Source of the DNA: Incurvaria masculella | Taxonomy: Eukaryota; Arthropoda; Insecta; Lepidoptera; Incurvariidae | Length of the DNA stretch: 64,000 bases | Direction: 5' to 3' | Assembly: GCA_946894095.1 (NCBI GenBank) | Contig: OX335656.1 | Coordinates: forward strand, 139,001 to 203,000 | In this document: positions 1 through 41,800 of the stretch, one piece after another | How the letters are laid out: every line of letters begins with the position of its first letter | How positions within the stretch are numbered: position 1 is the stretch's first letter | Program-made: the position numbers and the translations under genes | Notes under the pieces: generated by a model | The model's database searches: none | Seen by the model: the letters and a program-made list of their open reading frames with translations, nothing else | What the model was told of the DNA's origin: nothing

Positions 1-1250
1 TGTCGGCTGTGCACCGTCGCCGCCACCATGCACGCGAGTACCTACGCACACACACACTCTGGGAACAGGGTAGACTGACGGAGCACGAGCAGGAAGCAGG
101 CGAAGGCGCCGAGCGCGGCTCGGTGGCCGCGCCCGCCTCGTACAGCAGCTTGGGCGCAAACACGCTCCACACCATCAGGTGTCGGCTGTGCACCGTCGCC
201 GCCACCATGCACGCGAGTACCTACGCACACACACACTCTGGGAACAGGGTAGACTGACGGAGCACGAGCAGGAAGCAGGCGAAGGCGCCGAGCGCGGCTC
301 GGTGGCCGCGCCCGCCTCGTACAGCAGCTTGGGCGCAAACACGCTCCACACCATCAGGTGTCGGCTGTGCACCGTCGCCGCCACCATGCACGCGAGTACC
401 TACGCACACACACACTCTGGGAACAGGGTAGACTGACGGAGCACGAGCAGGAAGCAGGCGAAGGCGCCGAGCGCGGCTCGGTGGCCGCGCCCGCCTCTTA
501 CAGCAGCTTGGGCGTAAACACGCTCCACACCATCAGGTGTCGGCTGTGCACCGTCGCCGCCACCATGCACGCGAGTACCTACGCACACACACACTCTGGG
601 AACAGGGTAGACTGACGGAGCACGAGCAGGAAGCAGGCGAAGGCGCCGAGCGCGGCTCGGTGGCCGCGCCCGCCTCGTACAGCAGCTTGGGCGCAAACAC
701 GCTCCACACCATCAGGTGTCGGCTGTGCACCGTCGCCGCCACCATGCACGCGAGTACCTACGCACACACACACTCTGGGAACAGGGTAGACTGACGGAGC
801 ACGAGCAGGAAGCAGGCGAAGGCGCCGAGCGCGGCTCGGTGGCCGCGCCCGCCTCGTACAGCAGCTTGGGCGCAAACACGCTCCACACCATCAGGTGTCG
901 GCTGTGCACCGTCGCCGCCACCATGCACGCGAGTACCTACGCACACACACACTCTGGGAACAGGGTAGACTGACGGAGCACGAGCAGGAAGCAGGCGAAG
1001 GCGCCGAGCGCGGCGGCGGCGGCTGCGCCCGCCTCTTACAGCAGCTTGGGCGTAAAAACGCTCCACACCATCAGGTGTCGGCTGTGCACCGTCGCCGCCA
1101 CCATGCACGCGAGTACCTACGCACACACACACTCTGGAAACAGGGTAGACTGACGGAGCACAAGCAGGAAGCAGGCGAGGGCGCCGTGCGCGGTGGCGGC
1201 GGCCGCGCCCGCCTCGTATAGCAGCTTGGGCGCAAACACGCTCCCCAGCA
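1..1250 (-). repeat. PIGO: Tandem array of the PIGO terminal exon (179/180-bp unit, about 7 copies, array runs off the left edge)
   Basis: Each unit holds an acceptor (gtgtgcgtag) followed by exon 14 sequence reading VLACMVAATVHSRHLMVW and then SVFAPKLLYEAG. The last part matches human RHLMVWKVFAPKFIFEA. Exon starts lie at 1116, 936, 757, 578, 399, 220 and 41. Four copies share a 1-bp loss after YEAGA that shifts the frame. Two copies (near 489 and 1036) have a TAA at the Tyr codon. The right-most copy (about 1135-1250) keeps the frame but lacks its 5' part. None of the copies here encodes an intact C-terminus, so the working exon probably lies left of the window, or the protein ends early. 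Plus-strand ORFs here are shadows. Confidence 0.9.
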
Positions 1251-1386
1251 TTCTGCTGTATTCTGTACACTCAACGGTATGATAGCGTGCACGCTATCCA
1301 CGACGCAAAACATCATACAAAAACACACCATACCTATCTTACCATGCGCATTTTAGTGTAAAGACAACGATTTACTGTCACTAGGC

Positions 1387-1977
1387 ATGATTCACAGTTA
1401 CGCTGATGACAGCATAAAGCATGAGGGGTATGTGAGGGATTGGAGGAGCAGAGATGCACAACCCAGCGAGGCCCAACGTTCTGTGTTTAATAAGGTGGAT
1501 AATGTTTTCGAAAAGTTGCCATCTGTGTCCTGGAGAACCTTTGTCGCCTTCAACGTTTACAAGACGCAATGCCGTGTTTTCACTGCCAAGTTAGATCCAT
1601 TTCCTCTCCTAGCAAGTTTCCAGGGAAATGTCATAACAGTCCCGAAGCATCTGAACCTACTTGGCTGCAACATTTCCAAAGACGTGTGTTTTTGGCGCTT
1701 CATTGAATCCAAGGCCAAAATTGCATCACAGAAACTGGGGATCTTATACGGTTGCAGAAGGTTCTTGTTACTGGCAAAACTAGTTCTTCTTAACAAATTA
1801 CAAATAAGTCCGGTGATAGAATAGTGGAACCACATATGGGAAGGTAGTCCCCAGTACCTGCTGGCGTCCTTGGACTCAATACAGCGCCAAGCAGTCCGTC
1901 TTGTTGGTGACCCACAACTCACTGTGATCCAAAGATTGTTGGGTGTGGAAATAAAACCATCCAAATCTATATTGAGA
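1387..1977 (+). pseudogene. LINE reverse transcriptase C-terminal fragment
   Basis: The translation starts HSYADDSIKHEGYV, the YADD palm motif of a non-LTR reverse transcriptase, and runs through a thumb-like region with PKHLNLLGCNISKD. After a TAG at 1822-1824 the same frame continues WNHIWEGSPQYLLASLDSIQ and RQAVRLVGDPQL, a typical C-terminal block of RTE/CR1-type pol proteins. The 5' part of the element is absent. It lies in PIGO intron 13. Confidence 0.75.
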
Positions 1978-2185
1978 TAACAAAAAGGGATTCTTTTTTT
2001 AATTTGAATTAATGAGTATTATAATCGGTACAAAATATAAGTAAGGAAATCTACTGGGAGTGAGTAATGATAATGTATAGGCGTGGCTAGTGCTTTTCCC
2101 CCCGACTGACCCAGTCGGCTGCGCTTCGAACGTTTAGGTAACTCGCCGTTCTCGCGAGCCAAAATTTCCGCCAAGCGATGACGTA

Positions 2186-3073: not shown

Positions 3074-3075
3074 TA

Positions 3076-3899: not shown

Positions 3900-3900
3900 A

Positions 3901-3936
3901 GCCTCTGCCACCGCGCGGAGAAGCGGCGGCAGAGGC
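3901..3936. other. GC-rich hairpin upstream of the LINE
   Basis: Arms 3901-3914 (gcctctgccaccgc) and 3923-3936 (gcggcggcagaggc) pair at 13 of 14 positions with an 8-nt loop. The hairpin stands out in AT-rich surroundings about 130 bp before the LINE reading frame and may mark its 5' UTR. Confidence 0.5.
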
Positions 3937-9206: not shown

Positions 9207-10089
9207 CTTAGGGTTCAGAGGAGGCAGAGGCCGGAAAAAGGCGAATGCTACGGGGGCACCAATCGAGACCAAGCCCCAGAGCTCAAAGAGAGCCCGTCAC
9301 GACGATACCCTGTCGCCTCGTGGCGGTAGCAAGCGCCCCAAAACTGACCCGGGCCAAGGCTCCACTGCCTCATATGCTGAAGCTACCAAGACCAACGACC
9401 TGTGCGTAGCAGTCCTCACCGAACCACAGCAGGACCTGACGCAGGAACAGGCTGCCGCGATCCAGGAGGCACTGGAGAGGGTTCTGCTGGAACACATGAG
9501 ACAGCGGAAGTCAACACCCGGCGAACCCTATTTCGCGCCCTCCTTTCGAGGTAAACCGTTCCATAGCGAAGGTGTGCTTAAAATGTGGTGCGAAAACGAA
9601 AAGTCGCACGGATGGCTTCGGAAAGCCGTCTCAGAGATCCCATCCCCAAGACCAGGCACCAAGCTGATTGTCCGGAGACAGGTCGATCTCCCTCCTAAGG
9701 TAAAGTGCGCCGTTTTCGTCCCTAAGTTCGCTGGCGAGCTCAACGAGCTGAGGAACATTCTATCCGACCAGAACCCTGAGTACCAAGTTCAGTCGTGGTC
9801 TCTATACCATGCGGACCGGAAAGAAGAAGGCAATTTCCTTATACTCGGGGTACCTCAAAATATTATTCCCAGGATTATGGGCAGACAGCGTCGCATGGCC
9901 TTCATGCTTGGATGCGTCTACGTGAAATTCTTCACCGCCTCGGGGGCACTGGTCGAAACGCCACCCACTCCGAAGCAGTCTGCGCCGTCGGCGACGGGTA
10001 CGACAGCTGAAAAGCCGTCAGAGACCACGCCTTCTGGCAGCGACACGAAGATGGACAGCGATGGCGTCCCCAGCCCAAAATCCAATTAA
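9207..10089 (+). CDS. LINE ORF1 (gag-like, DUF4780-type), 5'-truncated
   Basis: About 293 residues lie inside the element. A basic, disordered start (GGRGRKKANATG, SKRARHDD) is followed by DLCVAVLTEPQQDLTQEQAA, EKSHGWLRKAVSEI, DLPPKVKCAVFVPK and NFLILGVPQNI. This is the layout of the DUF4780 domain in many insect LINE ORF1 proteins, presumed RNA-binding. The ATG at 9109 lies in the flanking Helitron and is only fortuitously in frame. ORF1 overlaps ORF2 by 29 nt in a different frame. Confidence 0.8.
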
Positions 10090-14697: not shown

Positions 14698-14828
14698 CCG
14701 AACTGCAAAGCAGAGCTGGAACCTGAGACAGGCAGCGAATACGGCGGAGAGCGGCGGCGGCTTCTCGCCCCCACCGCCGCCCCACAGCACCAGCAGGGGC
14801 GACGCGAGACCCATCAACAGTGCACCAC
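14698..14828 (-). CDS. PIGO: PIGO exon 13
   Basis: The exon is 131 bp. It encodes GALLMGLASPLLVLWGG, a Gly/Pro-rich loop and SAVFAACLRFQLCFAVR. It corresponds to the helix after NTF (LLFAVGCPLLLLWPF) and the start of the next helix in human PIGO. The acceptor is gtcggcag and the donor is CGG followed by gttagt, leaving phase 0. Phase 0 suits the gtgcgtag acceptors of the terminal-exon copies at 41-1116. Confidence 0.87.
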
Positions 14829-17800
14829 CTGCCGACACACAGCCCGCTTTCAGCGCTGCACCCTTCTAATACACGACCAAACCAAAGATGAAAAATTACA
14901 TGACTTCAAGGTGCGTCAAGGTCAGTGTCATTATAAGGGTTATAGGGCATACGGATTTCAGCAGCACTTTCAATACTGACCGAACGTGTTGAGGAGAAGG
15001 AAGGCGGCGGCGAGCGCGCGCGGCGCGGCCCGCTGCGTGTCGAGCTCGCCCGCGTGGAAGGCGGCCGCCCAGCGCACGTGCGCGAGCGTGGCGTGGTGGC
15101 CCGTACCGTACAGGTAGTTCAATACTGACCGAACGTGTTGAGGAGAAGGAAGGCGGCGGCGAGCGCGCGCGGCGCGGCCCGCTGCGTGTCGAGCTCGCCC
15201 GCGTGGAAGGCGGCCGCCCAGCGCACGTGCGCGAGCGTGGCGTGGTGGCCCGTACCGTACAGGTAGTTCAATACTGACCGAACGTGTTGAGGAGAAGGAA
15301 GGCGGCGGCGAGCGCGCGCGGCGCGGCCCGCTGCGTGTCGAGCTCGCCCGCGTGGAAGGCGGCCGCCCAGCGCACGTGCGCGAGCGTGGCGTGGTGGCCC
15401 GTACCGTACAGGTAGTTCAATACTGACCGAACGTGTTGAGGAGAAGGAAGGCGGCGGCGAGCGCGCGCGGCGCGGCCCGCTGCGTGTCGAGCTCGCCCGC
15501 GTGGAAGGCGGCCGCCCAGCGCACGTGCGCGAGCGTGGCGTGGTGGCCCGTACCGTACAGGTAGTACGTGGAGAGCAGCGCCCACGCCACTGCTGACGCC
15601 GCCTCCGCGCTGCGACCCTCGCCCTCCGCTGCCAACCACATATACATGCATTATTTTTATGTGAATGGTATATACGAGAACTTAACTGAAATTATATGAA
15701 TTTCATTATATAATTATCAGTATTACATTTCATTTTTTTCTGTGTGTGCGTAGCCCAGCCGAGCTGCCACGTTTTCACGAACTCTGCATTATTTCGAGTA
15801 TAAACATAGTAACAAAACGAGTATAAAAATATTGTTACCGCACAAGCCATACACAGATAGTCTATTTCGTTTCACAGCATAAACGAAAGCGTAGTGCAGT
15901 GGCGGCGTGTGTTGGAAGGGAGGCGTTGACAAGGGAATCTCTAGATCAAATCCGGACGTAAACGGATTTTTTTTCCTTTTTTCTTTTTCTCAATTAAAAT
16001 ATATTTGACATGAATTGCCAAAAATGCCATAAGGATTTTTTTTATGGAGACGCTATCAGGTGCTCATATTGTTTTAAAACATTCCACTTGTGTTGTATGA
16101 AGGAATTGAACTTTCAACCCTACAATGTCAGGTTTCAGCTCACCTCACGATCTAGATATGCAACGGATCGTACAGATAATTCGGCGTAGTTTTGCATCTG
16201 AATTCGAGGCCATTCACACAAAACTAAACATGCTACCGGAGCTGAGAGATAACTGTTGTCGGCGGAGCGACCTACGAGCGACAAGCCGCGCGCGCGCTAA
16301 CTGCGCAGCTCTCCGCGTGGGGGCGCCACCGTCGACATGACGCCCGGTGGACGGCGCAGCGCCATATTATTTGTTAAATTGGACACTGTTATGTAAATAT
16401 TTACAGATATCGAAGTTCAGAAAGCACTTAAAAATCTCGACCCGTTTAAAGGTGCAGGGGGTCCATTCAGAGTAAGAGTGAGTTCGAATTCGCCACTAAA
16501 TATCAACTCACTTTTTTAAATAGTTAATGTTTCCACACTTCTAAAACATCATTACAGTTAGGTAAAAAAATCTGGTTTGTCCCGTAAATACGTTGGAAGT
16601 ATAAATAACGGTTCCGTTATTTAAATAATAATACATTTCCTACCTATTTTTAGGTTAACTCACTCCCGAACTCGAACTCACTCTTGCTCTGAATGGACCC
16701 CCAGGACTTGTAAAGCTGCCACCTTTATTTATAAAAAAAGTGTGGTCCTTCACTGTCTACTCCACTGGCAATCATTTTTAATGCATCAATTTCTACTTCT
16801 ACTTTCCCTTCACTATGGAAACAAGCCCATATCGTTCCAGTTCCAAAAAATGGCGATTTACATGATGTCACTAACTATAGACCTATTTCTATTTTATGCA
16901 CTATTGCTTTTTAGCTAAAATAATATTAAAAAAAAATATGTCCAATTACCAATTACCCCCAAACAACATTTGTTCCTAAAAAGCCCACAACAACCAATTT
17001 ACTTTGTTACTCCACCGCCTTGATTGAATATGCTAAGAAGGGATTGCAAGTGGATACAGTATACACAGATTTTTGTAAATCCTTTGATAAAGTTAATAAC
17101 AGGACTTTAATAAAAAAAATTACACACTTTTGGTTTCCGCGTTCATGCAAGGCTTTTAGTGCTCGAGGTCTTTTCTTCTGCGCATCAATATCTGTGTTGT
17201 GGTTATTTAGTTTCCAACAAACATACAGACAGACAACTGATTTGAGTGTTCTGTGGGTGTTTAAACTATTGTCTAAGATTGGCTTACCACAGTTATTTTC
17301 CTCGGTCCTTCTGGCCGACGTTTCGAACTGTCCCGTGCAGCTCATTTTCAAGGCGAGTGCGTGCGTGCGGCTGCGCGCACGTTTGACAGACCACTGTCTG
17401 TCACACGCGAGCGGCTGCGAAGATTGTATGAGTGGCTGTGGGTAGGCAGAAAACTTGTTGCGGCTGCGTTCTGTGCTCCCATCAATGTGCAGAATGAGCT
17501 GACGACATCTTCCTGCGAATGGTTTTGTGGGGAGTCGGACTTGCTACATCTCAGAGGAGCCAGAACCGGATTCCAAACTGCTGACAATTTGTACGAGTCT
17601 CCTCTATTAAAATTGGCGTGCTTCGAAATCTCGATGGACTCACGGATAATCCTTGGGAAGAATCGTTTTTCGGTGGACAAAATCTTCACCTGATCGAATC
17701 TTATCCAGTGGTGTATTCCGGAGTCGGCGTGCTCGGCAATCGCAGATTTATTTTTGTCCATTTTCTTAAGGGCACGTACATGTTTAGAAATCCGTTCCAT

Positions 17801-20800
17801 AACGCTGCGCTTGGTTTGGCCTATGTAGGATTTTCCACAGCTACAGGGAATCTGGTAGACACCCGGCGACTGTAACGGGTTTAGGGCGTCCTTCACGGAG
17901 CAAAGTAGATGTGACACCTTGGTTTGAGGTTGGAATATCGTTTTTATACTAAATCTGCTCAACAACCTCCCAATTTTATCAGTGACTCCCTTTATGTATG
18001 GAAGGTACGCCTTCTGCCGCTCAGCACCTTGTCTGCGTGTGAACGTTTTAATTGTGTAGCTGGCAGACTTTCCTTTATATCCATTAGCGGCCAAAACTCT
18101 TGTCACCAATGCTCTTTCTTGGGCCTTGCTGGTATTATCACATAAGCGGTCTGCACGCCGGCCAGAAGGACCGAGGAAAATAACTGTGGTAAGCCAATCT
18201 TAGACAATAATACAGACAGACATTCACTTTTATATAGGTAAAGAAGAGAAGACAAAAGATATGTGAAGATGAGAACCAGCAAGGATAATCTGAGTTTTTT
18301 ATGGTATGTTTCGGTAGGTTACTGATAACTTCATTTAAAATAGTATAAAACGCTGATGATGTGTCATCCATGGAGCCGAAAGCTAAGCTCTTTGCCCAGT
18401 CCATCGTAGATAAATGAGTGCATATTGAGCTGTAATCAGCTTTGAAATAGCAGTAAAGAGTGGGAGGAGAGTCCCTCGGTGGCGCGCAGCGAACGTCCGG
18501 CAGGCCGACCTCGAGCACAGGGTGGTGCGGCTTGTCCTCTCGCACCAGGGGCCGAGTACATGCATCGCCGCCGCCGCGCCCCCATTTCACGCATCGGATG
18601 TATATCATCACGACACAGCATCTCTTTTGACCAGTCTCGTCACATCGATGTACATCATACCTAGTATAGGCTATCTCCGCATCAAATCACGTTTCACGTC
18701 GATTAACCAAATTCCTGCTATGAATAACACTTAATATTCATTAAGTAGTATTCTATGCCTGAATTTGACAAGTTTGCCGCGGATACTGTGAACTTAAATA
18801 GAAATAAGAATAGAATCAATGCAAACGATTGTGCGGGAAGAGAAAGAGTGGTAGAGTGGTAGAGTGGGGACCCACCTCGCAGGGCGGCGAGGTGTCGCTG
18901 CGCGCGCGCGAGAAGCGCGAGCGCGGCGGCGGCGGCGGCGAGCAGCAGCGCGGCGGGCGCGGCGGCGGCCGGCCCCAGCGCCAGCGACAGCGCCACGTGC
19001 AGCACGAGGCAGGCGCGCACGAGCGCGGCGCGCGCCCCGCCCGGCCGCGCGCCGCGCGCCGCCAGCAGCGCCGCCAGCGCGGCGAGCAGCGCCCACGCGG
19101 CGCGCGCCAGCAGCTGCGAGCGACGCGCCGCCGCGCCCGCTCCCCCCCCTCCCCACGCCGCCGCCCAGTGCCCGCACACGCACACCGCCGCCGCCGCCGG
19201 CCCGTAGCGCCACACCATCGCCGCCGCCCCGGCCTCGCCGCCCCACCCGCTCCGTTCCGACCTGACGCACACACGAACACGCCCGCTGAAACACTAACGA
19301 CCCAACTACAATACAATATTTTTTTTTAAATATGAACGGTTTTAAGAAATATCAGGTTCCTATGAAAAGATATGTTTGGTATTGAAATTATGAAATGCAT
19401 TATATGGTACAATATACTAGTTTTAACCTTAATAAACACATCAATAGTATCAGGACATTTCCTGTGCAATTGTAAAGTATTAAAATTAAGAAAGATCTCA
19501 GAAAAGGTTTATCCAAATGTATGTTGAATGTAATAATCGTTATGAATATGTATTTTTTTCTTTTATCTTTTTGTTCTATTATTATGTTTTGCTAGCTATG
19601 GTGCCAGTATTATTTGAAATTTTAGCTCGAATTGTGCTGGTTAGGTATCAATTTATACCATAAATATTAGTGAATGTTGTGTTCGTTTATAATTAAGAAT
19701 GCACTCAGTCTATTCTCCATCTGTATTTTCTATGTATGTTCTTGTTGACGAACCTAACCAAAAAATAAAAAAGTATCAATAATCAAACCAATACCTAAAA
19801 AACCGGTCAAGTGCGAGTCTGACTCGCACATGAAGGTTCCGTACGATCGTACAATATTTAACATAAAACAATCACGTTTTTTGTTCTATTTTATTTTTTA
19901 ATTTTAACTATTTTTTGTTATAGCGGCAAAATAAATACACACTCTGTGAAAATTTCAGCTGCCTACCTATTACGGTTCATGAGATACACCATGTGACAGA
20001 TGGACGGACGGCTGAGGCTTAGTAATAAGGTTCCGTTGTCACCCTTTGGGTACGGAACCCTAAAAAACTAAAGTAGAAACACTCCATGATATCCGACCTA
20101 TTAGTATTAGGGTGCTGCGAAAACAATGCTGGCCGGCCTGGCGCTCCTCACACCATGTTTGAGGGGCCCATTTAGGTGCTAGACAACGCCCGGGAATTCG
20201 AACCATCAGAGTGACGCGAAAACCAAGCCGGCCAGTCAGGCTTAAATTCAATTCAAATCTTTGTCGCACTAACTTGTTGTGAATATAAGCCTAAAATCGG
20301 TATGCGTGCAGTCGTTGAACATTGTAAGGAAGTTAATTTACGAAAATGGGATGTTTTCTTAATCTGAGATGGCTAAATGTTATTTAAAACATTATGGGGG
20401 TCAATGGGGGATTAAAAGCATTTAAGGCGGGAAAGAAGATCACGCCCATATTTGTTGTCAGAGATCCCAAATTTTGCTCAAAATAGCTTTATTTGATCGA
20501 ACTAGATGTCTGATGACCGTTGGCATTGTAAAATTGTGTTTTGTTTCTAAGTTATAAGGTCCGAAAGTTCGAATTTTTCGCGCGTTTTATACAATAACTT
20601 CGGAGGTGGATTACGCTATGATAAAGTAAGAAAATCTTAAAAAGATTATTGTATTGTTTTATTGCATTCATAGGTAGGTAACCTACACTTAAACATGTCA
20701 AGAATCGTTATGCTAGGTCTATGTCAAAGATATAAATGTCGCATACTTCCATGCACATAAGAACTGGCAAACATATTTTGCCAGTCACAAAATAAGTTTA

Positions 20801-23800: not shown

Positions 23801-26800
23801 CCCGTCTCCACCTCCGTACCCGCGTCTGCAACCAACCACACACCATCAGCCGCCGCGCGCGAGCCACCGGCACTCCGCCACGCCGTTCCGGTGCAGCGCC
23901 ACGAGCGCGCTCAGCGCCAGCGTCGACACGAGCCCCGCCGCCAGCACCGCGCCCGTCTCCACCTCCGTACCCGCGTCTGCAACCAACCACACACCATCAG
24001 CCGCCGCGCGCGAGCCACCGGCACTCCGCCACGCCGTTCCGGTGCAGCGCCACGAGCGCGCTCAGCGCCAGCGTCGACACGAGCCCCGCCGCCAGCACCG
24101 CGCCCGTCTCCACCTCCGTACCCGCGTCTGCAACCAACCACACACCATCAGCCGCCGCGCGCGAGCCACCGGCACTCCGCCACGCCGTTCCGGTGCAGCG
24201 CCACGAGCGCGCTCAGCGCCAGCGTCGACACGAGCCCCGCCGCCAGCACCGCGCCCGTCTCCACCTCCGTACCCGCGTCTGCAACCAACCACACACCATC
24301 AGCCGCCGCGCGCGAGCCACCGGCACTCCGCCACGCCGTTCCGGTGCAGCGCCACGAGCGCGCTCAGCGCCAGCGTCGACACGAGCCCCGCCGCCAGCAC
24401 CGCGCCCGTCTCCACCTCCGTACCCGCGTCTGCAACCAACCACACACCATCAGCCGCCGCGCGCGAGCCACCGGCACTCCGCCACGCCGTTCCGGTGCAG
24501 CGCCACGAGCGCGCTCAGCGCCAACCCCGCCCCGCCGCCAGCACCGCGCCCGTCTTATTTTTTAATTTATTTTACTTTATTTGCAAAGAAAAGAGTTAAT
24601 ATACGTACATATAAAATAATCATAACAAAAACAACATAAACCAATAAATCTTCGACATAAAATTAAACACAGTAAAAGTAAACTTAAACCATTTCTAACG
24701 CTAATCCTAGCTACTACAACTACCGGTTTTGTTACCTTTTCAAACTAAAAATATTTATCAGAAAACAGAAAACAGTAAGTAACAAATTTACCTACGTTAT
24801 TTAAATTGATTGATTAATTGCAAACATTTCTTAAATTTCCCTAAATTAACATTAAATATATCGATATTTGTACATTATTTATTGAAGGAAGTACAACTTC
24901 TACGAACGAATGTGTTTTTAAAATAATTAGTATGGCATTTTATTTTATGAACATAAAATGTGTCGCCGGAACGGGTTAATCTAGTAGGGCATCTGAAATT
25001 AATATTAGAGAGTAAGTACGGGGTTTCAATTTTTGTATGTATTATTTTGAAAAGCATGATTAGATCCCTATTTTCGCTGCGATGTTGTAAGGATTCTAAA
25101 ATTTCATCTACTTGATTAAAACTATTTGGGGCTATATATGATACATATTTCAAGAATTTGTTTTGAATCTTTTCAAGGTTTTTGATATAGGCATCATATT
25201 GAGGGTTCCAAACAGTTGATGCGTATTCAAGATGACTTCTTACATACGCAACATACAGAGTTTTGAACGTATTTATAGATTTAAAGGAGCTGCTAGTGCG
25301 CAGTAGGAAACCTAGCATTTTATAAGCTTTCGCACTAATATGCTCAATATGGGATTTAAATAGAAGTTTACTATCGAGAATAACTCCAAGATCTTTAACC
25401 TCGTCAACTCTTTTAATTGTTTTATTCCCGATTGAATAAGTAAAGAACTTTTTAGCAAATTTCCGAGAGAAGGATATGATTGAACATTTATCGATGTTTA
25501 AATGGAGTAGGTTAAGATTGCAATATTCATGTAGGTTGTCTAGGTCCTCCTGTAAGTCTTGGCAATCTTGAATAGTTTTTATAATTTTTATTATCTTTTT
25601 GTCGTCAGCATACAAAAGAAGATTTGATTTACGTATAGCTAAAACGACATCGTTTATGAATATGTTAAACATAAGTGGCCCAAGGTGAGAACCCTGGGGA
25701 ACACCAGATGTGACTGGGACAAACATGGAGCAGTAACCTTTAAGAGTCACTGCTTGGGAGCGATTTGCCAGATAAGATGACAGCCAACGCAGTAGATCGC
25801 CGTGTATACCCATGGATTCTATTTTCAAAATAAGCAAGTTATGTGGAATTTTATCAAAGGCTTTGGAATAATCGGTATACACGACGTCCACCTGGCTTCC
25901 ATCGTCCATCGCCCCAAGGACCAGGTCAACAAACTCACATTAGTTTATCTCGGTCGATTTTTTCGAGATAAAACCGTGTTGGTTCGGAATAATAAGTGGC
26001 CTAATTAAAGGAAAAATTAAGTCAAAAACTATCTTTTCAAATAACTTACCAATTACATTTAATTTAGAGATTGGGCGATGGTTTTCTATATTGTGTTTGT
26101 CTCCTTTTTTGTAGACAGGCACGATAAAAGAGCGTTTCCATTCTAAAGGAAAATAGCCCTTGCCAAGGGACAAACGAAACAAGTAAGACAAAGGAGAGGC
26201 CAGTACATCTGCGCAGTTTCTTACAAATATTGGGTGGATTCCATCAGGTCCGCTTCCCTTTTTGGGATCAAGCGATTTTATGTATTTGTGTACTAAGGTA
26301 GTGTCCAGGTTTATCGAACTGATGTTAACTGTAGAAGAGTTTTCAATAACAATGGGCGGATTTAATGGCGAGATATTCGTAGAGCATGGTTCAAATGTTG
26401 ATTGAAAAAAGGTAATAAACAAATTTGATATATCTTGGCCACCCTGTGCAACGGAGTCACAGAGGATCATATTGTCAGGTATGTCTGATGATCTTTGTTT
26501 GGACTTGATAAATGTCCAGAAATATTTAGGATCATTTTTTATATGTCCCTCAGCTCTTTTTATATAATTATCGTAACATATTTTTTCGACTCTCTTTTGG
26601 CGTTCTCTCAAGAAAGAAAATGTATTGTAATCTTCATTACGTTTGTAAATTTTGTATTTCTTATGATATTTAAGTTTCTCTTTAATAATTTTGATTAAGG
26701 CACGGCTATACCAAACAGGGTGTCGAGGATTGGAATGTATAGTTCTGGTTGGTACGTGGGCATCTATTATCGAGTTGATTTTGGCATAAAATCGTTTTGT

Positions 26801-29800
26801 CGCCAAATCAACGTCGTCGACGCTGAGTGTAGTTAGCCAGTCGACGTCGGATATGGCGCGGCGTATCTCGGCGTAGTCAGCGGTGTGAAAGGAGCGCGCG
26901 GTGCGGACGCGGGGCGGGGCGAGGGCGGGTTCACTCGTCACCTGCACCTCCACCTCGAGGGACTTGTGGTGCACATCCTCCGGCACGAGCGGCCGCACGC
27001 ACCACCTCACCGCGCACACGCAGTTCGACATTACTAGATCTAAGATGCGCTCATTAGCATTCCGATGAACATTAAATTGCTTGAATCCCGAGAAGTTGAG
27101 GAACTCTGCAAGTGTTAATACAAGAGGATCGTCGGGAATGATACTTTGCACTAAGGCACCGTCATTATCTGTCGATGGGTCCCAGGTAGCCCGGCTCACA
27201 TTAAAATCACCTAACAATAAGAATTGGTCGCGTGGAAAATCGGTACACATTTTTGATAAGAAATCAAAATAATTGGAAAGTGAATCCTCCATATCCGCGT
27301 CTGCAACCACCCACCGACCGTAAGTTTTCAAATATTGATATGCAACCCTACGACGAGGCCACATATAAAGAAGTGCAGTGGTCTTCGATCAAAGCGAGCA
27401 AGTGTCATGGTCTCTCGAGTTCCTAACAAAGTGCTGCAATAATGGAGTCATTCCAAAGTAAAACATCGCAAGCAAGACATCGCGACATCGGAGCATATTC
27501 TGCACAAACAGCTCATATGGGACAAGTGAAAGGAGCTAGCAATTTGAGGATGAGGAGAACTAAATCTCAAATTAGCGGCAAACATTTACGATGAGAACTA
27601 GCTGACAATCGATCAGATCTCTGAAAAAGCAAAAACACAAGAAAACAATTTAGGTAGTTTGTTTTAGCAAAAATAATTAAATAAAAAAATACTATGCGTA
27701 CTGAGCTCCTCTACAGGTACCACCGATCCGTGTAGGATATCCGCCGGTCTACCTCGAGTGGAATACTACTTCTACCAAGGCAGCAGAGGAATATGTCGGC
27801 GAACTGCTCGGCCGTGACGCCTATGCGTCACCCTATTTTATATAATTCCTCTTGCAAATAATAACCCAACTCACCTCATAACATTTCCCAAACTAAATTC
27901 ATGTCTAGCACCTAACAGTAATGCAGACCTCTACTAAGATCAGGGTCAGCATTTTTGTGCATATTAGGAGTCATGCCTCACGTTATGTACAGCCTCTCCT
28001 CGCGGATTAAAATATCATTCGGGTGGAGCCGGAAAGTCGGGAAGAGCTCAGCCTCGGCGCTCCGACCGGACTGTTCGGCCTCCGCCAACCCGCTACTAGC
28101 TACGGCTGCGCCTGCAAGACCAGAACCCGAGACTGTCTTGCTCGGCGTGCCCCTACGGACCCCTGCGCTGCGCGTGAAGACTTCACTTTCTCGGCAAAGA
28201 CAGGTTTTAGATATTACCACAATCTCTACTGATAGCGCGGCCGAACTGAGACCAGTCAAGGGGAAAGGAAAGCCACGCCTGATCTCCTCGTACTCACACC
28301 CTATTCAATATCTGTCCGAATAAATTGGAAACTTACCTACCTCGATACAGATTTCTGCATCCGCCCTGCACCCAACGTGATCACAGTGGAATAAGGTCTC
28401 ATAGAATTGAATTGAATTTTGCCATAACTTTTTTCCATGTGTAAAATGAAATTAATTTTACACATGACAAAAAGTTATGGCACATAACAAGAATTGTAAG
28501 AATGGCTTAATCACGCCGTGTCGATAAAGATTCTTGACGTTTCGGACGAACCATTTGGTCCATCATTGAAACACAGTGAGTAAGCGGTTCTTCCAAACCA
28601 TAAAATAAGTGTTAATCATGGTAATCTCCAATAATATATGTGTGATATTTACTGTGCCATATCTCTAGAACCTCTAGAGATAGATCCCACCTAGACCCAT
28701 CGTGTTGGTACCCAAAGTAAATCTGAAAAGTGCGTAAAAACTTTGTTTTTGTCGTACCCTTGACAACTTAAGCACTTCTTTGTTTTTTATTGGCAAGTAT
28801 AATACTCGGTAAATGATACTCGGACAGTTCTTGTAATTAATTAAACATTAAACAATATTGGAGAAGGGAAAAAAAAGATGTGTTCTGAACCATGAAATGA
28901 TGTACATTCTAAATGTAAATACGACACTTCAATCTTGGTAAAAAAATAATCATAAAAATGAGATAATGACCGGCGGCGGTGAGTGCGGAGGCGAGGGCGG
29001 CGGCGGCGGCGGCGGCGGCCGCGGCGGCGGCGGTCGCGCGCGGGACGAAGGCGCCGCGGAGGAGCGACGGCAGGCGCGCCGCCGGCAGCCCCTCCAGCAC
29101 CAGGTAGTTGAGGAACACGGCCATCAGCGCCAGCAGGCAGCCGCGCAGCATGGACAGCGAGTCGAACTCCACCCACACGCGCCGGCACTTCTCGCGCACG
29201 CCCTCCGTCCACGACCTGACCACCACCCCCCACCATTATTATGCACCATCTAGCCACACGAAACGCCATTCGACAGACTCTACTACAGCCATCTGTGTCT
29301 AGCTGGCGACAAAACCCAGTATTCGTGATCGAGCACCACACTCTACACTGCGAGTGAAACCTTTTGCAGAGCATGTTTAGTTTGCTATGAGGAATGTTCC
29401 GAATAAGTTTTTTTTGGTCTTTTTGCTTCAATATTACGTAACTAAATATACTTCTTTGTAATAATCGCTTTTTCTTACCTAATGTGATATGCGTTTAGAA
29501 TAGCAAGTAAATCAAAGAAAGAACCCTGTAAAAAGAACTACGTTATGAATATCTTACAAAGCGCGACGAAAACATACCATTCGTGGGTATTTCGATGACA
29601 TATCGTATTTGGGTATTCACATATATCAGATTCATTAAGAAAAAACCTCGTATTTGCTTAGTACGAAAAAGTTAATTTACTTAAGTCAAACTAGGACCGG
29701 GTCTAGCGTCTGATTTTATTTATAAGACATCCTAAATATACATAAGACAGTAAGTAATTTTTTTTATGTGTTCGAAAATACTTCAAATAATTTATCCATA

Positions 29801-32800
29801 GAGTGATATCAGAGCAAATTTGGTATCCGCACCGGGTGCTAGTGACCTATGCTACGCCACTGCACATGATTATGAAAATGCATTTCTTTCCCACAATTAC
29901 ATTAAAATCTCGCAGAAGATCTACTTAAATAAGTGCTGAGAGTGTGACAAATGTTATTTGCAAAAAATAAGCGATTTAAAAAAAATATTTCAAAGCGCTT
30001 AATTCGATCTATATGGGCACCACAATGTGCAATATTATTTCACTTTGACGACCCTAAGACATTAGAGTATGCCGGCAGGAGGCAGGTCATGCGACACTAG
30101 CGCCACGACCTGCTTCACGACACTATCATTTTCAGTATACTGTTCCGGAACGCACTGTATCTTGAGGTTGCAATGTCTGGATTGCTGCTCCAGGTTTGCT
30201 TAACTAGCACCCATGCAACACACTTGTGCTTCTAGGGAAATATTTGCGGCGGCGAGAGTTTCTACCACTGAATTTATATTATCTTTAATTATTTTTTAAA
30301 CCTTCAAAGTCCATGGAATCGGCTAGTCAAAAAGTTACTCAAAAAGGAGACCTAGCATCTTCCGTGAAGCGCAGGAATTGCTGCTCACTGGTGATGTTTG
30401 GTGCGCGCGAGCGCAGGTCCCGGTGCGATTGCGCCACGTCTCGCAGCCAGCTCGGGTCGAGCTGCGGCGACTCGGCCGCGTAGCGCTCCACGTAGCGTGC
30501 CACCTGCACACATCCACGCACACGCACGCGGGTCAGCCCCTCCGTTCCGCCTGCCCTGTGGTTTCGCAGCCCAAGTTTCTTCGCAGACTACCCCACACGA
30601 CAATCTTCGACAACGGGGGAACACAGTTCCCTGTTGACCGCCGCCGGCACGGGTGCTCGCCTGATGATGGACCAAACGTTTGGTCCGAAACGTCGTGCAA
30701 CATCATCGAAACACCGTGAGTAAGCCAGGTTTGTGGGAAACGCACAAACCCTCAACCGACGTCATAAAGTCATCTCGACTGTTATTTTGTTTTTTTTTTA
30801 TTGTTTATTCATCATCCATAGACAGTACACTGCACTCGGATTTGTCATATTTTAGCAATGTCCAGTTCAGCAAAACAAAACATAGCGAAGAAGAGCTGGA
30901 AAGAAACTGCGCTGTTTTTTTATTCAACCTCCACTTAGTCTAAGTTTACAAAAGTGTAGTTATTTTAACAAAGATATAGGTATAACACTAAATTCACATG
31001 AATACACAAAATTTACAATCCATGCCGTATGCAACAGTTCATGACTTGTTTGCATTCGGCATATTAATACACCGATACACATCTCTTATACTTATATAAA
31101 AGGGAACGTCTGTCCACATGCAAGAGGTAATTTCCGTAACCGCAAAACAGATCAAGATGCGATTTAAACCAATTTAAAAAGAACATAGCTGGGACCGCTT
31201 TCGAGTACATACCATTACGCTAAATATCCAAAGGGCTGAGCAATATCAATGAAATTACTCTCAAACAAAATTAATACCATGCCTAGGCATATGGTGGAGT
31301 TACTTGCGACGTCATTCAACGATTCACTATTTTCGCACTAATGTTCAGAAAGCGGATGGCGCAGGGCGGAATACCGACTCTTCTATTCGTATTTTGTTCG
31401 GGAGGATATAGGTTCGAATCCTGATAGCCTCAATTTTTTTTTAGTTTTTTACGTAATAGTTTAATGGCAAAATTATAATTCATGGTAGTCAGTGCGAGAA
31501 ATTGTGTTCCCGAGTACGGCTGAGTTAATTTTAAACTGAGTTAACTTTTGTTCACCTTTCGTAGGGTTAATTCCACCTGGGATGATACATACCATCGCAT
31601 TGAAGGAATGCATAATCGGGGCGTGAATATTGTCGTGTTTTAGATCCATTTGAATGTGGAAGTGTCATTGCGGGAAAATCCTGGTGAACCTGGTACTCTT
31701 CGACAGCCTCTTCTAGTGATGACAATCGTTAGCCACGTATTGGTTAAAACATTTTGGGAACAGAATAATGTCACAAGGTGCCAGGTCGGGACTGTATGCA
31801 GGATGACTCATAAGTTCTACGTTTTTAACCTATGAAAATTTGTATGTCTGCATGGCCGTCTGAGAACTGGCATTGTTGTGATGCAAGATGATGTTGCGTT
31901 TACTGTTATTTTTACGGAGTGCGTCATTTACTACCATCAAACAGATGGTGTTATACAAATCACTATTCACAGTCTCCAAAGCAACAGTCTGCATGCCTGT
32001 CTTTTTCATTTTACGGCGCACATCATTTATATTTTTGTTGCATAAAGCTGACCATCACTAAATTAGTCACAAGATTGACGCGATAGTCGCCTTTCATAGT
32101 GTTTCATCGCCAAAAGCAGTTTGAAGCCGAGCAAGGCTTTGTAAACTGTCAAATTACACTTAAATTCGTATAAAATCATGCTACGAAAATTTTCATAAGT
32201 TAATACCATGGTGATATAGACACGCATTTTTTTAAATGACGCCACAATGCAAAAACAAGTGACAGTAAGACAAAACAAACAAGACAAACAGCCTAAGAAC
32301 CGATTGAACGAAGAGAGGGATAAGTAAACAACGTTCAAACACGTCACTTTTAGTGAACCGCATATAGTTCCTTCCATACTCTCTATGCAAAGTGACGTGT
32401 TTAAGTTGACGATGATTTAGATTTTTGCCCTTTCGTGCACTCGGCTATAATACCAAAACATTTAATTAATTTTTCAATATTTTTTAGCTAAGTGGGCAGT
32501 TTCGAAAACTTATAGTGTGCCCTATGTATTATAAATGGAAAATGTTATAATATTTCTTATTTAATTAAGCTATATCGGCTCCATCCGTTATGATTAAAGA
32601 GTAACAGATAAATTACATCGCTATTGACCAGCCTTTTCGACTAGCCATTTGGGCTACTTTTTATCTAGGAAATAATTCAGCTCGACATCAGTCTAAAACG
32701 ACATGGACCCGAGCGGAGCCGAGTACCGCAGCTAGTTACATACATACGTACAACATCATGCCTGTTTGCCAGATGGGTAGGCAGAGACAATAGAACACCA

Positions 32801-35800: not shown

Positions 35801-38800
35801 TCCGGCTGCCAGCGAAGCCCTATCTTCCCGTTAGTACTCGCATCATTGCGATTTTTGTTTAAAATTATTGGTTAGAAAAGTAGATTCGTATTTTATTATG
35901 TGCTAACGTGGCCATTTTTGTATTACCACTAGCGATCTCCCGGGGGCTTAAGAGCCACCCGAATCATTTGTCGCTGCCGCTGAACCGAGGGTTCCATGCC
36001 CGTCGACGGGTAACGCCGCTGCGCGAGCCGATGCGCGAGCCGCGGCGCTGCAACCCGAGGGCGACCGGTCGAGCGGGGCTGCCGTAGCTGCCCTGGCGCT
36101 CGGACGGCGCACGTGGCTCGCCAGCGCCTCCACCACGTGGCCGCTGCCACGAGGTGCCATGCCAGGCGCCGCCCGGGGCCGCACGAGCCGCCTGCAGCCG
36201 ACCAGCCGCGCGCCGCGCCGCTCAGCCGAGCCAGTACGCCCGCCGCCTCCGCGCTCCGCGTCGACGACGTCGGCCAGATAAGTCCCATGTGAAGAGGGAC
36301 ACCCCGGATTAAGAAGCCATTTGACCATCGCAGGCCCCTCAGACGTATCATTACCTTGTTTGGTTGTTTAAATTTAAACTTTCTTAAAATTTATATTATG
36401 TGAAGATTTGCTCTCGTGTTCTCCTTTGTGTTTTCCCAAGCTCAGTTCGGTAGGCACAGTCCTAGAGACCCTTCTGGTCCCCACGTCGTGGGGAAGGAAG
36501 GGCCTCACCCATCATTCTTAGGGGTTGGAGAGTATGATGATCCGTGGCGGATCTGTCGGCATCGCCGAATAAATTTAACATCTTTTTTTTAAGGTCAAAT
36601 CATGTTTAACTTCAGTCCCTTGTGTAGCTAGACTTAAATTCATTTCCTTTTTCCCTTGTCGGCTTCACCTAAAAGTAGAATCGTGAATTTGAGAGAAAAA
36701 AAAATGGTGACCTTCTCGCATCTAATGCGCACACCATCTCTCCCCGTAAACTCTTTTATTAACCCCCACTAAAATATTTTTTTTTATGTTAAGCGCGGCA
36801 TATGGCGTACGCCAGGACATCTTAAGGTGCCCGACGACGCCCATGGGATTCCGAATTTACAGGGGGGCTGCGAAAACCATGCCGGCCGGCCAGGTGCTTC
36901 TTCACACCATGTTTGAAGGACCCCAGGTTGTACTTTGGGGGAAATACACCGGAAGGGAGTTCATTCCATAGTTTTCTTACCCTATAGATAAAGGATATAG
37001 AAGATCGGTGGGTTCTTATTTTTGGAATGTCGACTGTGAATGTGTGCATTTTCTCCCTGTTCCGCGTTGACCGAAGGTAGAAATATCAATATTTTTATTC
37101 ACTTTTTTTTCCGCCACGTGCCAATATACCTACTGATACTTCTTTTTAAATTGTAAATTAAAAACAAATTGTGATATGTAGAAATTTCTATTCATGAAAT
37201 AATACTGCATCAATGAGTCCATCCAGTTCAGTGTAGCCGTGCTCATAAAGGGAAGGTCATGGCATGGCACCTTATTCTCTCGAGAATGTGGTGTATTGGG
37301 CTAATATGATGACAGTAGTTGCATGGTATTAGCTAGCCATGTCAGGTTTCATAAAAAAAAGCAATGGTTAATGTCCAAGGAAGCGCCAGGTCAAGAAGTT
37401 AAAATAAACATACAACGATGGTTGAACGTAATGTAGATGAACGTAAGCCACGCACACGCGCACTCGCTCTCGCATCTGTACGACAACTGGCGGCGGAGGC
37501 GGCGGACAAGTGCACCGACGGCGACTGGTGATCGCCGGCGACCTCATCTTTCTCTTTCGCTTACTCATAATTATATCGTTGTCGCGCTTGCACAGATGCG
37601 TTGAATGACTGATTTATATTATTATTATTATATAAAAACTTCGCTAGTTTCATAAGTTATATTCTCTACGGCATCTAGCACCAACGCAACGTGGTGTTCT
37701 ATTGTCTCTGCCTACCCATCTGTCAAACAGGCGTGATGTTGTACGTATGTATGTTTTTTTTTACAATATTTTCAAGTTGCAGGATATGCAGTAAAAAGTT
37801 TTGATTCGTTTGAGTTTGGCATGCTTGGTATGCGTCCAGTGACGCATCCAATTAGTTATTGTTGTTTATTGTTTATTGTTTATTCATCATCCACACGCAG
37901 TACACTGCACTCGGATTTGTCATATTTTATCATTAGCCTTATAAGTCTAGATCAGGTTGATAACAAGCTTTCTTTTAAGCTTTCTTTTTGAAGATCCTAC
38001 TCTCAACAAGGACTTTGGCAGGATGTTTGGGTGGTTATCAATATGTTTCTTGTATCTTTTGACAGTTTTGTAGCATTCCTCGTGGATGGTGGGAATTAAT
38101 AAGTCTTTGTGAAGGGTTTCATTTGTCACATACCAGGGGGCATCCACTATGATCCGAAGCATTTTTCGACGTATGTATGTAATTATATATGTATATAGGT
38201 GTATCAATTTGTCGAATACAAATGAAATAACAGTCGAGATAAGTACAAATAGCTAAGTATGCATCTAAACATGTTTGACAGAGATGACTTTTTGATGTCA
38301 TTTTAGGGTTTGTGGAAAACCGCTTACTCACTGTGTGTCGATGATGTTGCATGACGTTTTGGACCAAACGTTTGGTTCATCATCAGGCGAGCACCCGTGC
38401 CGGCGGCAGTCAACAGGGAACTGTCTGTATGATGTGTTCAAACATTGTCAAAACAACAAAGTGATCTGTGTTTTTAGTCTGTCAGAGCGTGTGACAGATC
38501 AATTTGTAATTCGGCTGCTGGGATGTGCTAGCAAATACTCGCAATTCATTATGGTCTTCCGCCAGCAAAGATAGGCTCGTGAGAGCGTAGAGTGCTCGAT
38601 TTAAATGCTACGAAAACGTGAAGTGAAGTGTCGACGATCGTAAGTGCAACGAGAGCGCCTCCAGCCGCTGCCAACAGCGTCAAGAGTCGAAGGGAGCTTT
38701 AGATCGAGCCGGTACCAGGAGAACGTGAGAGAGTTGAGCCTGCTCAACATAGGTAGTTAGGTACCTGCGCGAGGTTGGAGACGAGCGCGAGCAGCGTGCG

Positions 38801-41800
38801 CCGCCAGCCGGTCCAGCGCGGCGCCGGCAGCGCGGCCGGCAGCAGCAGGCCCAGCGAGGGCGCGGGCGGCGCGCGGCCCAGCACCGCCGCCAGCGTCGCC
38901 GCCAGCTCGGTCTGGCGCACGCGCGCGCCCGGCGGCCCCGACCCCCACGCCCACCCGCCCGCCGAGTGTAGCAGCAGCGCCGCCTCCGTCTCCAGAGCGC
39001 TGTCGCCGCCGTGGTCGCCTACACTTGCCAAATATATTTGTGTGAATTTCAGTACCCAATCCTTCTTTATCCAAATTAAGTTTTTATGACGATTGTATGG
39101 AAAGGTCCTGACTAAAACAAGTTGTCAAAAAAAACAAAGTTGTCTATGGCTGCGTCTGTCAGTGCAGTGACAGATCGAATTGTAATTTCTGGCTAGGCAA
39201 GTGCTAGCCAGAAAAAGCAAGCTAGGACAAAGAGTCAATATTTTAAGTCTTCACGAGAAGAAGCCGACGTCTTAGAGGGAGTGCGTGCATTGGCCGCTGA
39301 GTTACCTCCCGTGAACAGTGTAATTATAGGAAATTATGGAATACCTAGTCTGCGAAATTCCACACCTTATTCGTTCTTTAATAAGTTGGAAGATAGTGCG
39401 CACATACCGGTGTCGGTCATACCGTGGTCGCCCAGCACGCAGAGCAGCGTGTCGGGCGGCAGGTGGCGCACGAGGCGGGCGAGCCGCGCGTCCAGCTCGC
39501 CCAGCTTGCGCGCCATCTCGGCGTGGTGCGGCCCGTAGCGGTGCCCGGCGTGGTCGACACCCAGGTAGTGCGCCACCAGCAACTGCCAGTCTTCACGTTC
39601 CAGCTCGGAGTATATAACTGAGTCCACTTCTGAAAACATTAACTAACTGTGATTTTTCCATTTTTATGACATGAAGTTATTGCGTTTTTTTTTAAAACTA
39701 CAGCAATTTGTATGTGTATTTAATTTGAAGATCATGCAAATTGTTAGGGCAAAGAATGGTGTTGCATTAAAAAGATTCTAGGTGTAGGAAACCTACTGAG
39801 CGTGCTGATGGTTCCAGCGGCCTGGGACCAGCCACACCCATGTATCGTCGCCGAGCAACAGTGTAGAATGTTAGTGCTCATGAATGTCAGAAGAGGAGGG
39901 CACACCATTGTCGACTTGTGAAGATCCCATGTATGAAGGAGTACTGAGCGTGTTGGCGGCAACAGCGGCGCCCACGTGTCGTCGCCGAGCAGCAATTTAG
40001 AATGCCAGGGCGGATGAATATCAGAAGTAGGGGGCGCACCGTTGTCGACAGTGTCGAGATTTCAGGTGTGAAGGAGTACAGAGCATGCTGACAGTGCCAG
40101 CGGCCTGAAAATAGCCGCGCCCACGTATTTTCGCTAAGTAGTAGTTTGGGGGTCCCATACAAAAAAAACGTGATTTTTTTGTGGTAAATGTTGTGCGATG
40201 GTACGGACCCTTCCAGTGCGAGTCCGACTCGCACTTGGCCGGTACCGAGCAGAGATATAGAATGTCAGGGCTGATGAATGTCAAAAGGAGGGGGCACACA
40301 TTGTCGACAGTGTCGAGATCCCAGGTGTGAAATAGTACTGAGCGTGCTGGCGGTTCCAGCGACTTGGGAACAGCTGCACTCATGTATCGTCGCCGAGCAG
40401 CACTGTAGAATATCAGTGCTGATGAATGTCAGAAGGAGGGGCCGCACCATTGTCGACAGTGTCGAGATCCCAGGTATGGAAGGAGTACTGAGCGTGCTGG
40501 CGGTGCCAGCGGCCTGGAAACAGCCGCGCCCACGTATCGTCACCGAGCAGTACGGCGAGCCCACCGCCCTTCACCACCTGCACACATACACGCACTGCTC
40601 AATATTTTAATAACTTTTTTTGTAGCTGGATGGATGGCTAATACCACACCCATATTCATCATATTGGCCCAACAGACTGCATTCCCCGAGGAATTAGGTG
40701 CCATGCAAGAACCTTCCTTTTGTGAGTGGCCCACTGTGGACGGCCCCGTGCGAAGAAAGCTAACATTACATATTTGTTACATAATTTCTAATCCTAGAAC
40801 GGGCCACACCTTGTTGGGAAGCAATGCACAAGTATTTTTGATCTTGCTGTTGGACTTACTAGAAAGCATAGATTTAATTGTACCACTTTGTGAACACTCC
40901 TACTATGAATATACTAAATACGAGTAAATAAAAATAAAGAAAAAATATACTGCTCTATCTAATCTAAAGGCTACTGCCAACAATTCTATAACACCTGGGT
41001 CGGTCAAAAATGTGCTAAAAATGATAGGGCCGATGACAGATCCCTGTGTCACCTGCCACTTAGGACTTGATGGGGCTCCGAAACTGTCTCTTCCACTCTC
41101 ACTCTGAATTCCAGGCCAGAAGCCTTCCACGAAAGTCGAAGTGCTCTTATTTGAGCAGCAGCTGTTTTATTTTAACATATTTTTTTTATTTTAAAATTGT
41201 AATTGCACACAATATGTAACTAATCAAACTTTGTTAATGATTTATGTGTAGATAGAAGGTAGGAGAAAGACGTGACCTGATCGATTAGATTGTCCTCCTG
41301 TATTTCTGCCGTGTGGAAGTTATCGCCGGCATCGAGGAAGGTGGGTAGCGAGCCGGTCACCAGCGCCTTAAGCCGCTGCAGCGTGGTGGTGGGCGGGTCG
41401 GCCACGAAGCGGAACAGCCGCGTAGTGTTGGGCTGCGCCAGGAGTGCTCGGACGCTCGGCAGCTTATTGAGATATGCCGGCGGCTGTGCCAGCCCCTCCA
41501 CGTACTCTGCGAAGTCGTAGCGGAATGCGTCCACCACCACCAGGAGGACTCGCGCTGCGCCCGAGTTCGGCCCGCACACCTAATGCACGCACATCCATAG
41601 AGTTCATTAAATATGTAGGTGTTGAGACAGTCACAAGAGAATTTCATGCATGCATCTGCACCATCAATCTGCCGGACTAGGCAGTTGTTGGAATTATATG
41701 TTTATGCATATATGCTGTTTTTGCTTACATCTAGAAATCATATTGCTTTCAGATTTCTAATGTTAAAACGGATTCTGTACCCAAAGGGTACATTGGGTAA

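What the first reader, a model, noticed from the sequence alone, without database searches (positions are those of the whole stretch)
1..40577. Four exons of one gene (PIGO) have each become a tandem array of a splice junction plus exon part
Seen directly: arrays built from exon 14 (179/180 bp), exon 12 (149 bp), exon 8 (151 bp) and exon 3 (about 135-150 bp). Each unit contains exactly one splice site and adjoining exon. Acceptor-type units (exons 8 and 14) lie upstream of their exon; donor-type units (exons 3 and 12) lie downstream, so extra copies always fall in introns. Inference: duplications on the exon side would be removed by selection, but four independent expansions in one gene, three with units near 150 bp, imply a shared local cause (GC-rich exon/intron edges, replication slippage, or repair of R-loops or breaks) and a spliceosome that must choose among many identical sites. 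I know of no named precedent for this pattern.
Basis: partly seen in the sequence, partly recalled or inferred. Interest (0 to 1): 0.88.

Follow-up and report, generated by a model that had tools for sequence, protein, structure and literature searches.

The report
Exon edges copied into intron arrays
In this moth-like genome, edges of protein-coding exons, usually with one splice site, have been copied head to tail into the neighbouring intron, in PIGO and in several other genes, giving a natural experiment on how the cell picks the right one of many identical splice sites.

Summary
Observation confirmed. The gene is lepidopteran PIGO (minus strand; frame open through exons 2-14). Four exon edges are tandem arrays: 179 bp x12.5 (exon 14; starts outside the window), 149 bp x4 (exon 12), 151 bp x15.7 (exon 8), about 150 bp x5 and about 85% alike (exon 3). 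Each unit holds one splice site. The protein uses the exon-proximal copy; 11 of 11 anchored extra exon-14 copies carry a stop or frameshift.
A cause confined to PIGO does not hold. A gene on each side (ASNA1/GET3, dynein intermediate chain), thickveins on another contig and a cation-channel gene carry seven more sequenced arrays. Spacing of family hits suggests six others, five in kinesin genes. Periods run 65-294 bp. Donor-side arrays outnumber acceptor-side 10 to 2; two repeat a whole exon, one spans a stop codon, two are untyped.
Best reading: recurrent minisatellite birth from GC-rich exon edges, tolerated because the exon-proximal splice site is used. A precedent exists: human CBS has a donor-junction VNTR and an intron/exon-junction duplication. 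New is the recurrence across genes of one genome and the donor bias. Splice usage and copy number in reads were not testable.

The parts
1..1251 (-). Exon-14 array, acceptor type, 179-bp unit; continues 995 bp left of the window (C16:138005-140251, 12.5 copies); exon 14 itself at C16:137962-138144, outside the window
   Evidence: TRF; 12 anchored acceptors, 11 of 11 extra copies carry a stop or a frameshift
14969..15565 (-). Exon-12 array, donor type, 149-bp unit (138 exon + 11 intron), 4 identical donors
22190..24555 (-). Exon-8 array, acceptor type, 151-bp unit (126 exon + 25 intron), 15 anchored acceptors, decayed outer end
39794..40550 (-). Exon-3 array, donor type, about 150-bp unit, five copies (last one a piece), extra copies 83-86% like the first, with unrelated sequence between copies 2 and 3
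15428..15628 (-). PIGO exon 12 (exon-proximal copy)
22120..22315 (-). PIGO exon 8 (exon-proximal copy)
40448..40577 (-). PIGO exon 3 (exon-proximal copy)
41277..41579 (-). PIGO exon 2, no array
39408..39629 (-). PIGO exon 4, no array
38765..39018 (-). PIGO exon 5, no array
30352..30503 (-). PIGO exon 6, no array
28971..29215 (-). PIGO exon 7, no array
21695..21838 (-). PIGO exon 9, no array
18876..19261 (-). PIGO exon 10, no array
14698..14828 (-). PIGO exon 13, no array
50330..50569 (-). PIGO exon 1 (approximate, from tblastn)

Best explanation
Exon-edge minisatellites. A stretch of about 65-300 bp that overlaps the edge of a GC-rich exon is duplicated in place (shown: units are part exon, part the intron or UTR next to it, beside the exon they come from). 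Further copies are added by slippage or unequal exchange, homogenise, and decay at the outer end (pattern shown, mechanism inferred). All copies but the exon-proximal one lie in the intron or 3' flank and are outside the coding frame (shown for PIGO exon 14 by stops and frameshifts, for exon 8 by a stop just past the exon part and a lost invariant residue; in exon 12 and thickveins the young copies are still identical to the exon). The mRNA stays normal because the spliceosome uses the site next to the intact exon: the first-transcribed donor, or the acceptor nearest the next donor (inferred; the CBS 68-bp duplication in human is reported to behave this way). This happens in several genes across this genome, mostly at the donor side, and goes with very high coding GC (small sample).
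For: Arrays read base by base. C16:99001-213000 (114 kb, contiguous) holds 10 non-overlapping arrays of period 60 bp or more; 9 are exon-derived, 1 lies in an ORF I take for a transposon (exon identities; typed exon translations checked against the DNA). Two more in 60 exon-centred loci. Six clusters in family tables, with PIGO as positive control. The exon-proximal copies align with orthologs; of 11 extra exon-14 copies 10 carry a frameshift and 6 a stop, all 11 one or the other; 14 of 14 extra exon-8 copies read HRNG where the exon reads HWDG (W invariant in 12 of 12 aligned) and meet a stop just past the exon part. Thickveins copies 2-4 identical to the exon, copy 5 one change, copy 6 three, copy 7 decayed. 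Donor:acceptor 10:2. GC3: the two array-bearing loci rank 1st and 3rd of the 51 loci scored. Old arrays: 3 of 5 extra donors keep GT, about what 15-26% divergence predicts (about 3.3, hand calculation), so no sign that extra sites are conserved.
Against: No RNA: which copy is spliced is inferred from the protein only. GC alone does not place arrays: in the PIGO span 58 of 129 GC-rich windows outside arrays touch no known exon, yet no array sits there. Eight of ten family tables show no cluster that I count, so incidence looks uneven; in four of them only part of the candidates was scored (kinase 128 of 629, MFS 9 of 336, ABC 19 of 181, myosin 65 of 129). The probe misses arrays: two of four in PIGO. 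Six of the 17 arrays are known from hit spacing only. A breakpoint with both native sides in hand could be read only for exon 12 (one base shared; the script scored 0). The GC3 value of thickveins is from its kinase exon, not the repeated exon.
Confidence: 0.72

Rival explanations
1. The arrays are functional: a bank of decoy splice sites that slows or regulates splicing, or tunes intron retention, and is kept by selection.
For: Splice sites are intact in the anchored young copies (12 exon-14 and 15 exon-8 acceptors; 4 exon-12 donors; these were found by exact anchors, so damaged copies would be missed); donor bias.
Against: Young copies are near-identical throughout, so intact sites are expected; in the two old arrays extra donors decay at about the neutral rate (3 of 5 intact); arrays occur in unrelated genes with unrelated periods.
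Confidence: 0.07
2. A cause local to PIGO or its chromosome end: a fragile, perhaps subtelomeric region that expands exon edges.
For: Density is highest here: 9 exon-derived arrays in 114 kb against 2 in about 213 kb of exon-centred loci; the contig start is 138 kb away.
Against: Arrays or clusters also lie at C16:4.98 Mb of 18.9 Mb, C15:4.3 Mb, C4:11.9 Mb and C6:18.1 Mb, which are not near an end as far as known (other hits reach 19.5 Mb on C15, 24.7 Mb on C4 and 24.2 Mb on C6). Contig lengths are known only for C16 and C17, so the C7 and C20 clusters may be near ends. The first 10 kb of C16 read N, so a telomere could not be seen.
Confidence: 0.1
3. Assembly artefact: collapsed or inflated copies produced by the assembler.
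For: Exon-12 units are 100% identical; no raw reads available.
Against: The same design recurs at 11 sequenced places with different periods; several show private variants, graded divergence or decayed outer copies. Exact copy numbers may still be wrong.
Confidence: 0.04
4. Tandemly duplicated alternative exons (as in mutually exclusive exon clusters) that add protein variants.
For: Two arrays repeat a whole exon (thickveins, dynein chain exon B).
Against: Nine of 11 sequenced arrays lack at least one of the two splice sites in the unit; thickveins copies are separated by only 32 bp of intron; the dynein exon-B copies carry frame changes.
Confidence: 0.05

Closest known systems
Human CBS 31-bp VNTR, c.1444_1467+7(16_21)
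   Same: Tandem unit made of an exon end, its donor site and a few intron bases (24 + 7 bp by its name), many copies (PMC2630376, passages)
   Different: 31-bp unit in one gene; here 65-294 bp units at edges of exons of several genes of one genome
Human CBS c.844_845ins68
   Same: Duplicated intron 7/exon 8 junction; the paper reports that the splicing machinery strongly favours the distal of the two sites, so the extra piece is removed (PMC2630376, passages; the paper's sentence calls the sites donors, by position they are acceptors). Same logic as PIGO exons 8 and 14
   Different: A single duplication, not an array of 12-15
Internal tandem repeats at exon-intron boundaries in human segmental-duplication genes
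   Same: Tandem repeats that overlap exon-intron boundaries and change gene structure; 27 intron modifications (PMC2812944, abstract and passages)
   Different: There the repeat is tied to novel introns and alternative transcripts in primate-specific paralogs; here conserved insect genes, and the unit carries the old splice site
Duplicated and mutually exclusive exons (recalled, no paper read)
   Same: Exon sequence in tandem
   Different: Copies here are mostly partial and outside the coding frame

Membership tests
Exon-intron-boundary VNTR (CBS 31-bp type) | Tandem unit contains exon end + donor + intron start | tested here: met
   6 of 11 sequenced arrays (PIGO ex3, ex12; ASNA1; dynein chain A and C; channel gene)
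Exon-intron-boundary VNTR (CBS 31-bp type) | Copy number varies between chromosomes | not testable with these tools
   one assembly only
Exon-intron-boundary VNTR (CBS 31-bp type) | Normal transcript made from one of the repeated sites | not testable with these tools
   no RNA; frame and conservation point to the exon-proximal site
Acceptor-junction duplication (CBS ins68 type) | Duplicated intron end + acceptor + exon start, upstream of the intact exon | tested here: met
   PIGO ex8 and ex14
Tandem alternative exons | Each copy a full exon with both splice sites and open frame | tested here: not met
   9 of 11 units lack at least one splice site; thickveins units do hold a whole open exon, so for that array the feature is met apart from the 32-bp spacing
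Dispersed satellite or element-captured gene piece | Copies elsewhere in the genome | tested here: not met
   PIGO ortholog search: 25 of 26 hits lie in the PIGO locus, the other is a weak hit at 36% identity; no DNA-level search with the units was made
GC-rich subtelomeric minisatellites | Enriched near chromosome ends | tested here: inconclusive
   dense here, but also at interior places; contig start reads N, most contig lengths unknown

The most novel reading that the evidence does not exclude
In this lineage exon edges are systematic seeds of satellite-like arrays: a genome-wide, donor-biased birth of splice-junction arrays, driven by the same process that pushes coding GC up (for example GC-biased conversion at recombination-rich exons), so that many conserved genes are transcribed with several to dozens of identical competing splice sites. 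The donor bias would then show directly that upstream acceptors are more harmful than downstream donors, as expected if sites are committed in the order of transcription.
Probability: 0.4. Interest if true: 0.78.

Novelty: new variant of a known kind. Interest (0 to 1): 0.62.

Why it matters
Splice-site choice between identical competitors is, as far as I recall, mostly studied with engineered reporters. Here a genome offers several such contests at conserved genes, with different copy numbers, distances and sides. The donor/acceptor imbalance can be tested as a readout of selection. It also shows a source of intron growth and of new tandem repeats that annotation may miss or misread as repeated exons, and it puts an exon in exchange range of non-coding copies of itself (thickveins copies 1-4 are identical).

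Tried and rejected
PIGO-only cause: rejected after sampling neighbours and other contigs. Nucleosome-size reading of the 150-bp units: rejected, periods spread 65-294 bp. Whole-gene or element capture: no good match to PIGO exons outside the locus. Placing the species: a thickveins tree puts it in the lepidopteran group (100/100) without a supported partner. MFS and ABC families gave 11 and 19 rows and no clusters. Repeated hits not counted as arrays: myosin C4, three copies 441 and 532 bp apart (looks like alternative exons); Ion_trans hits with overlapping profile range on C17, C21 and C26 and kinase pairs on C5 and C7; Y_phosphatase gene-sized repeats on C20. Clusters in the family tables were read by eye, not by script. 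Rows dropped: 9 of 60 loci (Ion_trans hits with stops inside) left out of the GC3 ranking; four minus-strand loci were first scored on the wrong strand and corrected. Literature: the searches in the held open library listed no report that I recognised, from titles and abstract starts, as exon-edge arrays across an insect genome; that library lacks most subscription journals.
Full report
What was checked. The window is C16:139001-203000 of a 552-Mb, 31-contig genome. The first array runs on to the left, C16:138005-140251, 12.5 copies. The exon-3 array is longer and older than TRF shows: five copies, the extra ones 83-86% like the first.

The gene. Joined exons give an open frame whose best named relatives are lepidopteran GPI ethanolamine phosphate transferase 3, PIGO. 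Aligned with 11 lepidopteran orthologs it is 47-51% identical, and invariant residues run through the exons. The orthologs share 66-81% with one another (mean 73%), and this species' copy has 42% Gly+Ala+Arg+Pro against 25-30% in them: the gene has moved fast towards GC-rich codons. A thickveins tree also gives this species a long branch among Lepidoptera (0.45, against about 0.1 for many others, though Eumeta and Plutella are as long) and no supported partner.

Anatomy in PIGO. Exon 12: unit of 138 bp exon plus 11 bp intron, four identical donors. After the last donor the native intron follows, and by eye one base at the joint fits both parents (the script scored 0), so this looks like a plain tandem duplication in place. 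Exon 8: 126 bp exon plus 25 bp intron, 15 acceptors by exact anchor, a truncated outer copy. Exon 14: 12 acceptors by exact anchor; of the 11 extra copies 10 carry a frameshift and 6 a stop, every one at least one of these. Exon 8: 14 of 14 extra copies run into a stop just past the exon part and read HRNG where the exon reads HWDG; the W is invariant in the 12 aligned proteins. In exon 12 the extra copies are still identical to the exon end and only lack its 5' part. So the exon-proximal copy is the gene's exon. Four random units on this gene would all hold exactly one boundary with probability 3.5e-5. But once a 150-bp unit overlaps an exon, one boundary is the usual case (79%), so the one-site rule is mostly geometry, not proof of selection.

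Beyond PIGO. I read C16:99001-213000 as one stretch. It holds 10 non-overlapping arrays of period 60 bp or more. Nine are exon-derived: four in PIGO; two in ASNA1/GET3 (an exon with a 113-bp donor-type array, 74% matches by TRF, and the last exon, whose 97-bp unit spans the stop codon so that 14.6 copies lie from the stop onward); three in an axonemal dynein intermediate chain gene (143-bp and 195-bp donor-type, the latter cut off by the end of my stretch so that its exon-proximal copy was not seen; and a 190-bp unit that repeats a whole exon with frame changes, read by eye). Identities: ArsA_ATPase and GET3/ASNA1, dynein axonemal intermediate chain 1. The tenth lies in an ORF that I take for a transposon (not tested).

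Samples elsewhere. Thirty kinase loci (112 kb) and thirty Ion_trans loci (about 101 kb of the 145.6 kb) held four arrays of period 60 bp or more: two AT-rich ones (L027 and L066, GC 29% and 34%) and two exon-derived: thickveins on C17, 217 bp x6.1, unit = whole 185-bp exon plus 32 bp intron, and a 65-bp donor-type array in a voltage-gated cation-channel exon at C16:4.98 Mb.

Spacing of family hits. With PIGO as positive control the exon-14 and exon-12 arrays show as evenly spaced hits, the exon-8 and exon-3 arrays do not, so this probe undercounts. Ten family tables hold 658 rows; in four of them only part of the candidates was scored. Kinesin (95 rows) shows four clusters whose upstream copy is the longest and whose copies share the exon's 3' end: C7 (197 bp), C6 (167 bp), C20 (237 bp), C6 (140 bp), plus a pair on C4 (294 bp) that cannot be typed. 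Dynein_heavy (24 rows) shows four copies about 217 bp apart on C15, not typed. The other eight tables show none that I count. The excess in kinesin is unexplained.

Tally. Seventeen arrays: 11 sequenced, 6 by spacing. Donor-only 10, acceptor-only 2, whole exon 2, stop codon 1, untyped 2. Against 1:1, 10 to 2 has two-sided p about 0.04 and, outside PIGO, 8 to 0 about 0.008 (hand calculation; arrays in one gene may not be independent). GC3: thickveins (kinase exon) 0.99 and the channel exon 0.95 rank first and third of 51 loci scored; PIGO exons 2-10 0.89, dynein exons 0.89-0.94, ASNA1 0.73.

How it works. Shown: origin beside the exon, partial exon plus flank, homogenised young arrays, decayed old ones, extra copies outside the coding frame, exon-proximal copy that fits the orthologs. 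In thickveins copies 2-4 equal the exon and later ones drift; in exon 14 the outermost anchored copy is the one without the frameshift, so growth does not always run the same way. Inferred: first duplication by end joining or slippage in GC-rich DNA; growth by unequal exchange; survival because the splice machinery uses the exon-proximal site. The donor bias fits a rule that the first site transcribed tends to win: a downstream donor copy comes too late, an upstream acceptor copy comes first. That step is inference.

What is known. In human CBS a 31-bp VNTR, c.1444_1467+7, repeats an exon end with its donor 16-21 times, and c.844_845ins68 duplicates an intron/exon junction, with strong preference for the distal site (PMC2630376, passages). 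Tandem repeats at exon-intron boundaries are reported in human segmental-duplication genes (PMC2812944, abstract and passages). So the kind is known, at single loci and in a set of human paralogs. I found no report of it as a recurrent feature of one insect genome (titles and abstract starts, open-access library only).

Limits. No RNA, no raw reads, one assembly, about 0.35 Mb of letters, six arrays without letters. The statement that it occurs across the genome rests on seven contigs and uneven families.

Noticed in passing
C16:118127-119537 (outside the window, L011/L010): ASNA1/GET3 last exon: 97-bp array begins at the stop codon, 14.6 copies into the 3' flank, the stop-codon counterpart of the splice-junction arrays.
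   Followed up: yes
window 24878-27388, minus strand: Two adjoining ORFs (482 and 354 aa) that look like a non-LTR retrotransposon reverse transcriptase, inside the PIGO intron just beyond the exon-8 array. Not tested.
   Followed up: no
window 17351-18199, minus strand: ORF with a motif that I recall from GIY-YIG nucleases of Penelope-like elements; in the intron between exons 10 and 12. Not tested.
   Followed up: no
window 9926-13669, plus strand: Long open frame of 1247 aa in the intron between exons 13 and 14, probably a transposable element; not tested.
   Followed up: no
C20:1.33-2.09 Mb and C21:0.63 Mb: Cluster of single-piece, often broken protein-tyrosine-phosphatase ORFs, partly in repeats of about 1450 bp. 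Bracovirus-mediated gene acquisition by Lepidoptera is reported (PMC4574769, abstract start in a listing); origin here not tested.
   Followed up: no
C4:6754006-6755170: Three copies of one myosin-head exon 441 and 532 bp apart, which look like mutually exclusive exons rather than an array.
   Followed up: no
C4:11941102-11941677: Kinesin exon twice at 294 bp (98 codons), both rows with a 200-aa open frame: perhaps a duplication inside the coding sequence.
   Followed up: no
whole genome sample: Kinesin motor exons carry 5 of the 6 hit clusters found in 658 family rows; no reason known.
   Followed up: no
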